From IMG/VR virus record IMGVR_UViG_3300045999_009250, positions 107,685 through 171,684 of that record: 64,000 nucleotides of DNA. One strand, given 5' to 3'. This DNA comes from a virus. Below are positions 20,757-29,348 of this stretch, piece after piece (the stretch's first letter is position 1; each line of letters starts with the position of its first letter). Below the pieces are notes generated by a model. It was not told the DNA's origin. It worked only from the letters and a program-made list of their open reading frames with translations, and ran no database searches. The position numbers and the translations under genes are program-made.

Positions 20757-20779
20757 AATAACGGTATATAACAACGTCT

Positions 20780-20810
20780 GATAAGGTCTCTGATAAGGGA
20801 TATGATAAGG
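20780..20810 (+). repeat. GATAAGG triple repeat with 12-nt period
   Basis: GATAAGG at 20780-20786, 20792-20798 and 20804-20810, a period close to one helical turn, as for protein-binding iterons. Confidence 0.7.
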
Positions 20811-20930
20811 ATTCTATTACGGTTAATACAACTATAAATAATAGTAACGTGTGACAAACTGATATGAAAGGGGATATGGAAATTGATAAGGAAAATTGAT
20901 ATGTGACTAACATGAAAATGGATATGTGGT

Positions 20931-20959
20931 GTGGTGGGTTAAGGGATATAACCACCCAC
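20931..20959 (+). repeat. Inverted repeat / hairpin
   Basis: GTGGTGGGTT pairs with AACCACCCAC around a 9-nt loop, with a 2x2 internal mismatch. Confidence 0.55.
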
Positions 20960-21169
20960 GTCATCGCCCCGTCCCATTTTACTACTACTAAAAGTATATA
21001 CAACAAATCGCAAAAACGCGCATCTCTTTGATAGGGCCCTTTGATAAAAGGAATTTTACATGATGAAGATTTAAAAACCATCAATCCATTGAGGGATTGC
21101 TTTAATAGGGCCCTTTTGATATGGAATTTAGCGCGTTTTTTTGTGATTTTGGAAAAATTGAATAACAAT

Positions 21170-21187
21170 CTATCAATAGATTGATAG
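21170..21187. repeat. Perfect inverted repeat
   Basis: CTATCAAT AG ATTGATAG, 8-bp arms and 2-nt centre. Confidence 0.65.
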
Positions 21188-21328
21188 CTTTATAAGTTCT
21201 TTGACAAGTTTTTTTGATAAGGGGAATTTTACGGGCGGAAGGGGATGCCGGCCCCGCAAAGAGCGGTGAGGATCGCGAGAGGGGAGGAATTTTACCCGCG
21301 GAAGATTTTAAAAGTCTGATAAGGAATT

Positions 21329-21361
21329 TTGGCAATGTAGGAAACCTTTCGTATGTTTACA
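21329..21361 (+). promoter_or_regulatory. Early-type promoter before 21379
   Basis: TTGG at 21329-21332, 19 nt, TATGTT at 21352-21357, TACA. Confidence 0.8.
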
Positions 21362-21378
21362 TCAAATAAATAAATAAT

Positions 21379-21815: not shown

Positions 21816-22619
21816 ATGCCATTAAATATCAATTCAGAAACATTTTTGACAGGGGCTCAGGTGCGAGCCAAGGCCCCGTCAATATTCACTACCCAAGGGT
21901 CTCCAGAAACAAGTGAACGCTACGCTCACATCCAAACTGATAGGATCATCTCTGATATGGAGCTCTTGGGGTGGGGTGTCGTGGATGCTAAGGAGGTTAA
22001 GGCTAGGAAAGGGGTAGGATTCCAGAAGCACCTAGTGGTGTTTAGAAATCCGGACCTAATGATCTCGGCTGAAGATGGGGACGATGTGTTCCCACAGATC
22101 CTTTTAACAAATTCTCACGACGGGAAGAACGCGTTTACTTTTACCGCTGGCCTATTTAGAATAATATGTGAGAATGGGCTAGTGATCTCCACTACGGAAT
22201 TCGAGAGCATGAAAATCAGGCACTACGGGTATTCATTTGAGGAGCTCCAGATCACGATCAGGGCTATGATTGAGCGCTTACCGTTGACAATTGAGTCACT
22301 TAACAAGTTCCGTGCCGTGGAATTGGGACAGGAGCAGATGCTAGAGTTTGCCCAGAGGGCACTAGCAACCAGATTTACAGCCGATGAATTAGAGAACATT
22401 GAAGTGGACCTAGCGCAACTGCTAGAGCCGACCAGAGCAGAGGATAGGGGATCAGATCTGTGGAGCGTGTTTAACGTGGTTCAGGAGAAATTGGTGGGCG
22501 GAATGTTCAGCTACACTTATGGGGATAAGACCCGCAAGGCTAGACGGATAAAGAACTTTAAACAGGATATCGCCGTTAATGAAAAATTATATGATTTAGC
22601 ATTGTCATACGCGGCTTAA
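21816..22619 (+). CDS. DUF932 family protein
   Basis: 267 residues matching the phage/plasmid DUF932 pattern: GWGVVDAKEVKARK, HLVVFRNPDL, LLTNSHDGKNAFTFTAGLFRIICENGLV, and MKIRHYGYSFEEL. The family's role is unknown; it often sits near mobile-element replication or defence genes. Codon use is strikingly richer in GC than neighbouring genes (many GGG, AGG, CTA, ATC and GAG codons), as in 22677 and 25330, suggesting separate origin or different selection. Confidence 0.85.
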   Translation: MPLNINSETFLTGAQVRAKAPSIFTTQGSPETSERYAHIQTDRIISDMELLGWGVVDAKEVKARKGVGFQKHLVVFRNPDLMISAEDGDDVFPQILLTNSHDGKNAFTFTAGLFRIICENGLVISTTEFESMKIRHYGYSFEELQITIRAMIERLPLTIESLNKFRAVELGQEQMLEFAQRALATRFTADELENIEVDLAQLLEPTRAEDRGSDLWSVFNVVQEKLVGGMFSYTYGDKTRKARRIKNFKQDIAVNEKLYDLALSYAA

Positions 22620-22635
22620 AGAAATAACTATGATA

Positions 22636-22663
22636 GGGGATTTGGGTAACTAGATCCCCTTTT
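22636..22663 (+). terminator. Terminator fused to promoter
   Basis: GGGGAT / ATCCCC stem, then TTTT. Confidence 0.8.
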
Positions 22664-22674
22664 GTATGTTTACA
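22642..22674 (+). promoter_or_regulatory. Early-type promoter before 22677
   Basis: TTGG at 22642-22645 in the hairpin, 19 nt, TATGTT at 22665-22670, TACA; ATG 2 nt later. Confidence 0.85.
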
Positions 22675-22676
22675 GA

Positions 22677-23552
22677 ATGAGTAATTATCTATATTTTGAC
22701 AAGGCACAAACCAAAAGAGGTCGTGGTAGACCAAAAATTCAGAACGTAATGCCTGTTCCTTCTATTATTGATTTCACAGGCATTGACAAGCTAGGTAATC
22801 TAGAGATTGATCCCCGAATGATGGAGACAATGACATCTGGAATGAGAATGGACCAGTTGATGTCTCATGAAGGTGGGATACCGTGTGCCACGAACATTAT
22901 GTGTATTGGGGATCCCGGGGTAGGGAAGACCACTATTCTGCTAGACTATCTGGCAGGGATCCAGACCGCGGGGCGCAAGTGTCTATTCATATCAGGTGAG
23001 ATGGGCAAGAAGCAGATGTTCAAGTACTCACAAAGGTTCCCTCAATTCCAGATACTAAAAACATTGTTCGTGTCTGATTATATTAACTACAATACTAAGG
23101 ATGTCATTGAACAGTCTCTTAACATGGGTTGGGATCTGGTGCTTATAGATAGTATAGCCGAAATTATAGGCGGCGTGCGAGATGATAATGGGTGGGACAG
23201 GAAGACTGCTGAGTCTTGGCTCGTAGACGTGTGCCAGCAGAATAATAAGGGTGAGAACGATGATAATAAGTTCACGTCATTTCTTTTGATACAGCAGGTG
23301 ACAAAGGGAGGTGTGTTCGTAGGGTCTAATGCCCTGAAACATCTAGTAGACGCGTTCATGGAGATGAGGAGAGAAGGGACAAGAGCCGGAGGTGGTAGCT
23401 ACATGGAGTTCAATAAGAACAGAAACGGACAAGTTGGGGTTAGATTGCCCTATGAACTAGACGCTAATAAGATCATTTATAGACAAATATTAGACGTTAA
23501 AGAAGATGATACAAAAACACCTGTAGAAGAAGATTTGGATACTGAAGAATAA
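22677..23552 (+). CDS. RecA-fold ATPase, RadA/DnaB-like
   Basis: 291 residues. Walker A is GDPGVGKTT (near residue 83), a sensor-like ISGEMG follows, Walker B is LVLIDSIAE, then LLIQQVTKGG, HLVDAFMEMRR and YMEFNKNRNG, which is the KNRxG loop of RadA and DnaB families. RadA proteins act in recombination branch processing; a helicase or recombinase role in phage replication is inferred. There is no RadA zinc finger or Lon-like domain, so it is a core-only version. The in-frame ATG at 22662 is in the promoter. Its centre is GC-rich. Confidence 0.85.
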   Translation: MSNYLYFDKAQTKRGRGRPKIQNVMPVPSIIDFTGIDKLGNLEIDPRMMETMTSGMRMDQLMSHEGGIPCATNIMCIGDPGVGKTTILLDYLAGIQTAGRKCLFISGEMGKKQMFKYSQRFPQFQILKTLFVSDYINYNTKDVIEQSLNMGWDLVLIDSIAEIIGGVRDDNGWDRKTAESWLVDVCQQNNKGENDDNKFTSFLLIQQVTKGGVFVGSNALKHLVDAFMEMRREGTRAGGGSYMEFNKNRNGQVGVRLPYELDANKIIYRQILDVKEDDTKTPVEEDLDTEE

Positions 23553-25147: not shown

Positions 25148-25330
25148 ATGATACCAAAAAGAATAAAACTAATCAAAATGGATGATTTTGATCCAGTAGA
25201 ACCAGGAACATTAGGAACCGTTATTAAAGAAAACGTGGTACAGGGCCAAAACATCCTTGAGGTAAAATGGGATAATGGTAGAGGTTTAAATATAATTGAC
25301 GGTATAGACGAATACGAAATAATAGAATAA
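25148..25330 (+). CDS. DUF4314-like protein
   Basis: 60 residues: RIKLIKMDDFDPVEPGTLGTV, then EVKWDNGRGLNIIDGIDEYEII, the pattern of DUF4314, a small SH3-like domain common in phages and mobile elements. Its role is unknown. The stop overlaps the next ATG (TAATG). Confidence 0.78.
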   Translation: MIPKRIKLIKMDDFDPVEPGTLGTVIKENVVQGQNILEVKWDNGRGLNIIDGIDEYEIIE

Positions 25331-25878
25331 TGAAAACATTAATAATACACCCTAAAGATAGGTCGACGGATTTCCTGAAGCCTATCTACGCTGGGATCCC
25401 AGATAAGATAGTGATTACTGGGGGTACGACCCGGAAAGAGCTACATGAGCTGATCCAAGCACACGATCGAATCATTATGATGGGGCATGGGTACCCAGGG
25501 GGCCTGTTTAGTGTGGGTCAGTTCCCCTCGCCTGGAGTAATTATAGGCCCAGATGAGGTTTATTATCTTCAAGGTAAAGAGAACATATTCATATGGTGCA
25601 ATGCAGATCAATTTGTTAGGAGATATAGCTTGAAGGGATTTTCCACGGGCATGTTTATATCTGAGGTGAGTGAGGCTGAATGGTGTGGGTTGTCGGGCAC
25701 GAAGCAGGATGAAGTGGATGAGTCGAACGACACGTTTGCCCAGTTCATGAGTGAAGGCCTTAACGAGGGCCTGGGTGCGCGTGAACTGAAAGAGACCATT
25801 AAGGACAGATATGGTGTCCTAAGTGATATAAACCGAGTAGCCCTATATAATAATTATAGAATATATTTGTTTGATTAA
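25330..25878 (+). CDS. Hypothetical protein with GC-rich codon use
   Basis: 182 residues. LIIHPKDRSTDFLKPIY, IVITGGTTRKELHELI, then RIIMMGHGYPGGLFSVG suggest a caspase/CHAT-like or Rossmann-like fold with a His-Gly turn, and FIWCNADQFVRRY supplies a Cys, but I cannot assign catalysis. The centre of the gene is unusually GC-rich compared with its neighbours, like 21816. Confidence 0.65.
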   Translation: MKTLIIHPKDRSTDFLKPIYAGIPDKIVITGGTTRKELHELIQAHDRIIMMGHGYPGGLFSVGQFPSPGVIIGPDEVYYLQGKENIFIWCNADQFVRRYSLKGFSTGMFISEVSEAEWCGLSGTKQDEVDESNDTFAQFMSEGLNEGLGARELKETIKDRYGVLSDINRVALYNNYRIYLFD

Positions 25879-26315: not shown

Positions 26316-26430
26316 AGTCAGGTGGCGGAATTGGTAGACGCTATACCGATAAACATTCATAGAAATATGGATGTGTAAGGTATGATTAATCATGGTGGAT
26401 TAAATGCAGGTTCGATTCCTGTCCTGACTA
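26316..26430 (+). tRNA. tRNA-like element B, Leu-type shell with hairpin in the anticodon loop
   Basis: 115 nt. Acceptor AGTCAGG/CCTGACT, Leu-like D arm (GCGGAATTGGTAGACGC), stem ATACC (26343-26347) with GGTAT (26379-26383), long variable arm TTAATC/GATTAA, T arm GCAGG-TTCGATT-CCTGT. The anticodon loop is 31 nt and holds a 9-bp hairpin ACATTCATA-GAAA-TATGGATGT (26353-26374, one G-U). Either an intron-like insert or a tRNA-derived RNA no longer used for decoding. No anticodon assigned. Confidence 0.68.
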
Positions 26431-28676: not shown

Positions 28677-28753
28677 AGTCAGGTGGAAGAGTTTGGTACT
28701 TCGCTCGGTGGGAAACTGCTGAGAGGCCACAGGTTCGAATCCTGTCCTGACTA
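28677..28753 (+). tRNA. tRNA-like element C (normal length, atypical anticodon arm)
   Basis: 77 nt. AGTCAGG/CCTGACT acceptor, D stem GAAG/CTTC with GG loop, T arm ACAGG-TTCGAAT-CCTGT, discriminator A. The anticodon stem CTCGG/CTGAG closes a 10-nt loop (TGGGAAACTG) instead of 7, and no U33-type position precedes a triplet. First element of the second operon, directly after its promoter. Overall fold is tRNA; decoding ability is doubtful. Confidence 0.68.
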
Positions 28754-29051: not shown

Positions 29052-29273
29052 ATGAAACAAAAATATGTAACATGTAAAAATGCTTCTGAATGTGATTATA
29101 CTCTTCATAATATGAAGGATTACCTTGTTGTTGCTTATGATACACAACCTTATGGTATTGGTTGGGTTGTAATTTTATTACCTAATGGTAATACTAAATG
29201 TTACCCTAAAACCAAGTTTAGTAAAGTGTTTGAAAAACAGTCAGGTGGCGGAATGGTAGACGTAGGCCGTTGA
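29052..29273 (+). CDS. Small hypothetical protein whose end is encoded in a tRNA-like element
   Basis: 73 residues, beta-rich (DYLVVAYDTQPYGIGWVVILL). The last 12 residues (KQSGGGMVDVGR) are read from the first 35 nt of element E. If RNase P cuts at 29239, the message loses its stop codon. Not recognised. Confidence 0.58.
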   Translation: MKQKYVTCKNASECDYTLHNMKDYLVVAYDTQPYGIGWVVILLPNGNTKCYPKTKFSKVFEKQSGGGMVDVGR

Positions 29274-29348
29274 AAGTTAAGTGGTTCAGAGTTGGTCGTC
29301 TGATTACCTAAATTAGTAAACATACAGGTTCGAATCCTGTCCTGACTA
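29239..29348 (+). tRNA. tRNA-like element E with long variable arm
   Basis: 110 nt. AGTCAGG/CCTGACT acceptor, Leu-like D arm (GCGGAATGGTAGACGT), T arm ACAGG-TTCGAAT-CCTGT, variable arm CTGATT/AATTAG (29300-29316). The anticodon stem GGCC/GGTC closes a loop of about 25 nt that can form an inner hairpin TTGAA/TTCAG. No anticodon assigned. Overlaps the end of ORF 29052. Confidence 0.66.

What the first reader, a model, noticed from the sequence alone, without database searches (positions are those of the whole stretch)
20757..21328. GATAAGG iteron-like tract without genes
Six GATAAGG copies (three at a 12-nt period), three GGAATTTTAC copies, two GGGCCCTTTGAT copies and several inverted repeats lie in about 570 bp, just before the DUF932 and RadA-like genes. 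GC content jumps within it. It could be the phage replication origin or a structured RNA locus; none of the feature types I recognise explains it.
Basis: partly seen in the sequence, partly recalled or inferred. Interest (0 to 1): 0.68.

Follow-up and report, generated by a model that had tools for sequence, protein, structure and literature searches.

The report
Conserved phage origin-like DNA element
The gene-free stretch contains a 175-base DNA element that large viruses of Flavobacterium-like bacteria keep, once each and always facing the same way, while the genes around it change; it looks like the place where the virus starts copying its DNA, though no experiment has tested this.

Summary
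The tract is real and non-coding, but the repeats that caught the eye are mostly private to this phage. A sequence model built from ten copies, without base pairs, found one strong copy in each of 21 of 50 related viral records, 11 of them not used in training (E 3e-24 to 1e-6), including 9 of the 10 records of 75 kb or more. Two further records came from a second batch and two from a pattern scan. With the window left out of the model, the window still scores E = 9e-10; shuffles never exceed 4 bits. Layout: box1 TGTGAC(A/C)AAC; box2 TATGTGA(T/C)AAAC, 52-53, 63 or 73 bp on (5, 6, 7 helical turns); a G-rich, nearly C-free run; TAACCCC 46-47 bp after box2; then AARTATATAC. Flanking genes are not conserved, and there is no conserved RNA fold. 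I read it as the replication origin (0.5): two phased initiator sites, a strand-composition switch and a melting region. The boxes resemble degenerate DnaA boxes, but DnaA-trio spacing fails and there is no skew switch. The structured-RNA reading is not supported. GGAATTTTAC and GGGCCC copies are unexplained.

The parts
20780..20815 (+). three GATAAGG at an exact 12-nt period (private to this phage)
20835..21008 (+). conserved origin-like element (whole)
   Evidence: model R1 match E 2.7e-24 (training member); leave-window-out model 20841-21013 E 9e-10, best score in 1.92 Mb of shuffles 4.0 bits
20850..20859 (+). box1 TGTGACAAAC; minus strand TTTGTCACA, 8/9 to DnaA box TTWTNCACA
20861..20899 (+). 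spacer with GATATGA/GATATGG/GATAAGG at 12-nt steps; corresponds to the GATATA-rich spacer of relatives
20900..20911 (+). box2 TATGTGACTAAC; minus strand TTAGTCACA, 8/9 to DnaA box
20912..20948 (+). C-free G-rich run (two-tetrad G-quadruplex motif at 20920)
20949..20975 (+). TAAC + C-rich block, start 47 bp after box2 (TAACCCCTTTTCC in most relatives)
20980..21001 (+). TACTACTACTA then GTATATAC: AT-rich end block; AARTATATAC is conserved
21005..21149 (+). long imperfect inverted repeat (arms 21005-21021 and 21131-21149), private to this phage
21040..21333 (+). private repeat family, consensus TTTGATAAGGGGAATTTTAC: 21040-21059, 21115-21132, 21213-21232, 21281-21295, 21315-21333; the last copy runs into the promoter -33 box
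   Evidence: absent from relatives
21327..21360 (+). Bacteroidota-type promoter TTTTGGC (21327-21333) .. TATGTTTAC (21352-21360) of the downstream operon
   Evidence: consensus TTTG/TANNTTTG from PMC6847099
21379..21813 (+). ORFan 144 aa, first gene after the tract
21816..22619 (+). DUF932 protein (PF06067)
22662..23552 (+). RecA/KaiC-like ATPase

Best explanation
The core of the tract (20835-21008) is the replication origin, or an initiator-binding origin core, of a large clade of Flavobacterium-type myoviruses. Shown: the element is non-coding, conserved, one strong copy per record, in one orientation, with two related boxes a whole number of helical turns apart, a fixed 46-47 bp from box2 to a point where the + strand switches from G-rich/C-free to C-rich, and an AT-rich TATATAC block at the end. 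Inferred: an initiator (host DnaA on degenerate boxes, or an unidentified phage protein) binds box1 and box2 on the same face of the helix with the spacer bent between them, strains the G/C switch, and opens the neighbouring AT-rich TATATAC block so that the phage helicase and primase can load. The 12-nt GATAAGG repeats would be auxiliary, lineage-specific sites. The downstream promoter serves the next operon.
For: Model R1 finds one strong copy per record in 21 of 50 related records, 11 of them new, plus G054 and G057 and G087 and G088; records fetched for unrelated reasons give none. Leave-window-out: window E 9e-10 against at most 4.0 bits in shuffles. Box1-box2 spacing 52-53, 63 or 73 bp; box2-TAAC 46-47 bp in 22 of 23. 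Mean G 17.2 / C 2.4 in 37 nt before TAAC and G 3.2 / C 13.5 in 28 nt after. No conserved neighbour gene; in close pairs the element is conserved while adjacent genes are swapped. Box2 matches the DnaA box at 8/9 or better in 15 of 25. No conserved RNA pairs. An isolated relative, phage immuto (DUF932 44% identical), has its own 12-nt iteron array around GTATATAC 2.3 kb from its DUF932 gene.
Against: No replication data. GC skew does not change sign at the element in the window or near the immuto array. No initiator gene sits next to it in all lineages. The DnaA-box match is degenerate, chosen after the fact, and in the window alone near chance (3 such sites; about 1 expected by my own estimate for uniform base composition). 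DnaA-trios are not within 16 bp of a box. Constant orientation may only reflect that nearly all genes point one way. Helical phasing rests on about three spacing changes.
Confidence: 0.5

Rival explanations
1. A transcription-control region: boxes 1 and 2 are phased operator/activator sites and the G/C switch is a roadblock or attenuator that insulates upstream genes and regulates the promoter downstream.
For: A promoter of the phage class lies 70-380 bp downstream in 16 of 23 copies, none in the 350 bp upstream; helical phasing also fits regulators; in the window the last GATAAGG copy abuts the -33 box.
Against: The downstream gene is not conserved and the distance to its promoter varies widely; the same promoters occur before many genes without the element; one strong copy per record is odd for a regulatory motif.
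Confidence: 0.25
2. A different single-copy cis-acting site: packaging (pac), recombination or partition site.
For: One strong copy per record, oriented, non-coding.
Against: Lies among small early genes near DUF932, usually 1-15 kb away; in immuto the terminase gene is about 55 kb from the DUF932 region.
Confidence: 0.12
3. An R-loop origin of the T4 oriF kind: read-through transcription of the G-rich strand makes a stable RNA-DNA hybrid that primes leading-strand synthesis.
For: The G-rich, C-poor strand is always the RNA-like strand of the surrounding genes; T4 origins are a promoter plus an AT-rich unwinding element (PMC3016281).
Against: T4 origins have a promoter that fires into the unwinding element; none was found inside or within about 350 bp upstream here.
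Confidence: 0.1
4. A structured non-coding RNA.
For: Window-specific inverted repeats fold locally.
Against: No Rfam match, no conserved pairs, mean z -0.6 over 23 copies.
Confidence: 0.03

Closest known systems
Bacterial DnaA-type origin with basal unwinding system (DnaA boxes plus DnaA-trios; PMC8287927)
   Same: two DnaA-box-like sites, a G/C cluster, an AT-rich block; the window has TACTACTACTA (3'-GAT-5' repeats on the minus strand) beside the AT block
   Different: boxes 52-73 bp apart rather than nearly adjacent; boxes deviate mainly at position 4; trio-like repeat about 70 bp from box2 instead of at most 16, on the other side, and not seen in relatives
Phage T4 oriF/oriG (promoter plus unwinding element, R-loop; PMC3016281)
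   Same: large myovirus, origin-sized non-coding site, AT-rich block, G-rich transcript strand would favour R-loops
   Different: no promoter firing into the element; strong sequence conservation, while oriF and oriG share little homology
Iteron origins of plasmids and lambdoid phages
   Same: short direct repeats in a non-coding stretch next to an AT-rich part
   Different: only two conserved boxes; 12-nt repeats are lineage-specific; no adjacent Rep/O gene found; no match among plasmids
Iteron tract of Flavobacterium phage immuto (NC_055915, 66.27-66.9 kb)
   Same: 12-nt period, non-coding, near DUF932, contains GTATATAC
   Different: motif ACCCGTT and opposite G/C strand; no significant hit with the element model

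Membership tests
DnaA-dependent origin (BUS) | DnaA box matching TTATCCACA with at most 2 mismatches | tested here: inconclusive
   8/9 to the looser TTWTNCACA in the window for both boxes; box2 at least 8/9 in 15 of 25, exact in 2; some lineages 4-7/9
DnaA-dependent origin (BUS) | at least three DnaA-trios within 16 bp of a DnaA box | tested here: not met
   trio-like TACTACTACTA (20980-20990) is about 70 bp from box2 and absent from relatives; criterion
Replication origin (general) | conserved non-coding site, single copy per genome | tested here: met
   one strong hit per record in 21 of 50 records
Replication origin (general) | local copy-number peak / autonomous replication | not testable with these tools
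   no reads, no experiment
Replication origin (general) | GC-skew sign change at the site | tested here: not met
   skew stays positive on both sides in the window and in immuto; all genes one way, so weak test
T4 oriF-type R-loop origin | promoter directed into the unwinding element | tested here: not met
   0 of 23 with a promoter match inside or in about 350 bp upstream
Iteron origin | array of conserved direct repeats plus adjacent initiator gene | tested here: not met
   12-nt repeats not conserved; no common neighbour gene
Structured RNA (Rfam or new) | conserved, covarying base pairs | tested here: not met
   0 consensus pairs; mean z -0.6

The most novel reading that the evidence does not exclude
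A new class of phage replication origin, conserved across a large uncultivated clade of Flavobacterium-type myoviruses: two DnaA-box-like sites phased by whole helical turns, at a fixed distance from a sharp G-to-C strand switch and a TATATAC melting block, kept in place while the genes around it turn over.
Probability: 0.35. Interest if true: 0.72.

Novelty: new variant of a known kind. Interest (0 to 1): 0.58.

Why it matters
I found no report of this element, and origins of large Bacteroidota phages appear to be undescribed in the papers I could search. This one can be recognised by sequence in fragmentary metagenomic contigs, gives a fixed point for ordering such genomes, and is compact enough (about 175 bp) to be tested on a plasmid. 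If the boxes bind host DnaA, these phages would take over the host initiator; if not, they encode an unknown initiator to be found by pull-down.

Tried and rejected
Protein-coding decay or minus-strand ORFs: no family match. Rfam: none. Direct similarity in named phages or plasmids: none. DNA patterns CTTTRAYAGGGCCCTTT and TTTGATAAGGGGAATTTTAC in viral contigs: only the same phage or chance. The first relatives (G022-G024) were suspected from a 17-nt match; by itself that was not significant against composition, and became convincing only after more relatives were found. The 16-mer ATGTGGTGTGGTGGGT elsewhere: chance. Weak model hits in three prophages (G094-G096): coding. DnaA-trio: spacing fails. 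boxA-like GTTCTTTGACAAG at 21196-21208: not followed, no conservation. IHF site: at most one mismatch in only 8 of 23, rejected as a shared feature. G-quadruplex: two-tetrad motif in 14 of 23 against 21 of 504 background windows, three-tetrad only in 2, so a by-product of G-richness at most.

Full report
WHAT IS THERE. The window is the last 64 kb (107,685-171,684) of a 171,684-bp virus record. Its genes are nearly all on the + strand. The gap 20757-21378 (622 bp) lies between an 81-aa ORFan and a 144-aa ORFan that precedes DUF932 (PF06067) and a RecA/KaiC-like ATPase. The only frames across the gap are TTG-started on the minus strand and match nothing. The last 34 bp are a promoter: TTTTGGC, 20 bp after TTTG, then TATGTTTAC. 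The same class stands before DUF932 in nearly all relatives and, as TTTCGTATATTCACATC, 12 times in the window against 0.58 expected. It fits the Bacteroidota consensus TTTG/TANNTTTG (PMC6847099). The nearest isolate by DUF932 and baseplate protein is Flavobacterium phage immuto, 44-47% identical, so the host is probably a flavobacterium.

FINDING THE CONSERVED ELEMENT. DUF932 relatives gave 80 viral loci at 65-100% identity; L001 is the same phage. None but L001 has the GATAAGG/GGAATTTTAC/GGGCCC repeats. A DNA search of related records with the tract gave only short matches, but three related records shared a 17-mer plus a second match in line with it in an intergenic gap. A scan of G-skewed gaps found more copies, and the shared 10-mer TGTGACHAAC collected ten. 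In the window this 10-mer occurs twice, both in the tract. The alignment shows box1 TGTGAC(A/C)AAC, box2 TATGTGA(T/C)(A/G)AAC, a G-rich C-poor run, (G)TTAACCCC, then AARTATATAC.

TESTING IT. A sequence-only model from these ten (R1) was run over 50 related records: 21 have one strong match each, 11 of them not in the training set, with E from 3e-24 to 1e-6. Of the ten records of 75 kb or longer, nine have it. A second batch added G054, G057 and a truncated G059, while the unrelated phage records in that batch gave nothing. Two more, G087 and G088, came from a pattern scan; G088 has the element about 1.1 kb before DUF932, as in the window, and G087 is a fragment in which no DUF932 gene was found. 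Because the window was in the training set, I rebuilt the model from 21 other elements: the window still scores 32.6 bits, E = 9e-10, at 20841-21013, while 1.92 Mb of dinucleotide shuffles reach 4.0 bits and 300 shuffled tracts reach 2.5.

GEOMETRY. Box1 to box2 is 52-53 bp in most copies, 63 in G014, G015 and G018, and 73 in G028 and G049: 5, 6 and 7 turns of 10.5 bp. Box2 to TAAC is 46-47 bp in 22 of 23. Composition flips at TAAC: on average 17.2 G and 2.4 C in the 37 nt before, 3.2 G and 13.5 C in the 28 nt after. In the window 20912-20949 has no C. Close pairs keep the element while neighbouring genes are swapped; no neighbour gene is shared by all. The element is on the same strand as DUF932 in every record where the two could be compared, mostly upstream of it.

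RNA OR DNA. RNAalifold finds no consensus pair; folding the G/C switch of 23 copies gives a mean z of -0.6; Rfam is silent. Rigid, helix-phased spacing is what protein sites on duplex DNA show. I therefore set aside the RNA reading for the conserved part. The phage-specific 3' part does contain a long inverted repeat, but it is not conserved.

MECHANISM. One strong copy per record, the non-coding setting, persistence through turnover of neighbours, two phased boxes, a composition switch and an AT-rich end block together fit an origin core better than a regulator of one operon. The boxes read on the minus strand are TTTGTCACA and TTAGTCACA, 8/9 to the DnaA box; box2 is 8/9 or better in 15 of 25 and exact in two. 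This is a lead, not a demonstration: by my own estimate such sites are near chance in one sequence this long, and the motif was chosen after the fact. The DnaA-trio rule (PMC8287927) is not met. The T4-type R-loop arrangement (PMC3016281) would need a promoter firing into the element; none was found. GC skew does not change sign in the window or in immuto, a weak test where all genes point one way. Phage immuto carries a 12-nt-period ACCCGTT array around GTATATAC 2.3 kb after its DUF932. The model does not recognise it, but it suggests that iteron-bearing gaps in this neighbourhood recur.

UNEXPLAINED. The 21005-21333 part (long inverted repeat, GGGCCC twice, five copies of TTTGATAAGGGGAATTTTAC-like units, a GC-rich patch) is in no relative. 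Its last unit runs into the -33 box, so a private operator cluster is possible. DUF932 and the RecA-like gene have GC3 of 0.53 and 0.45 in a genome whose other sampled genes are mostly near 0.06-0.24, so the GC step probably marks an imported module rather than the element.

Noticed in passing
26316-26430, 28677-28753, 29239-29348: Three tRNA-like genes share nearly identical ends (AGTCAGGTGG ... AGGTTCGAATCCTGTCCTGACTA) but have odd middles (77, 110 and 115 nt; ARAGORN reads a four-base anticodon in one and misses the other two). Similar ends occur in relatives L037 and L066.
   Followed up: partly
21816-23552 and 25330-25878: DUF932, the RecA-like gene and ORF 25330-25878 have GC3 of 0.45-0.53 while most other sampled genes have 0.06-0.24; relatives' DUF932 genes average GC 0.345, so this looks like a recently acquired module.
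   Followed up: partly
L141 21318-21383 and 21771-21898 (NC_055915.1 about 66317-66897): Flavobacterium phage immuto has two arrays of ACCCGTT at a 12-nt period flanking GTATATAC in a gap without credible genes: a candidate origin of an isolated phage.
   Followed up: partly
window, 12 sites such as 17032, 20283, 21347, 23907: Recurrent promoter/leader TTTCGTATATTCACATC before genes, 12 copies against 0.58 expected.
   Followed up: partly
upstream of DUF932 in many relatives, e.g. L023, L024 about 100 bp before the start codon: Conserved palindrome TTTAGAATNATTCTAAATGACATTTCC just before the DUF932 promoter, absent in the window.
   Followed up: no
21196-21208: GTTCTTTGACAAG resembles an rRNA-type boxA antitermination site (from memory); not conserved in relatives.
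   Followed up: no
small ORFs after the element in G016, G018, G028, G049: Short basic proteins with a KGRPV-like motif, possibly AT-hook DNA-binding, recur within 1.2 kb downstream.
   Followed up: no
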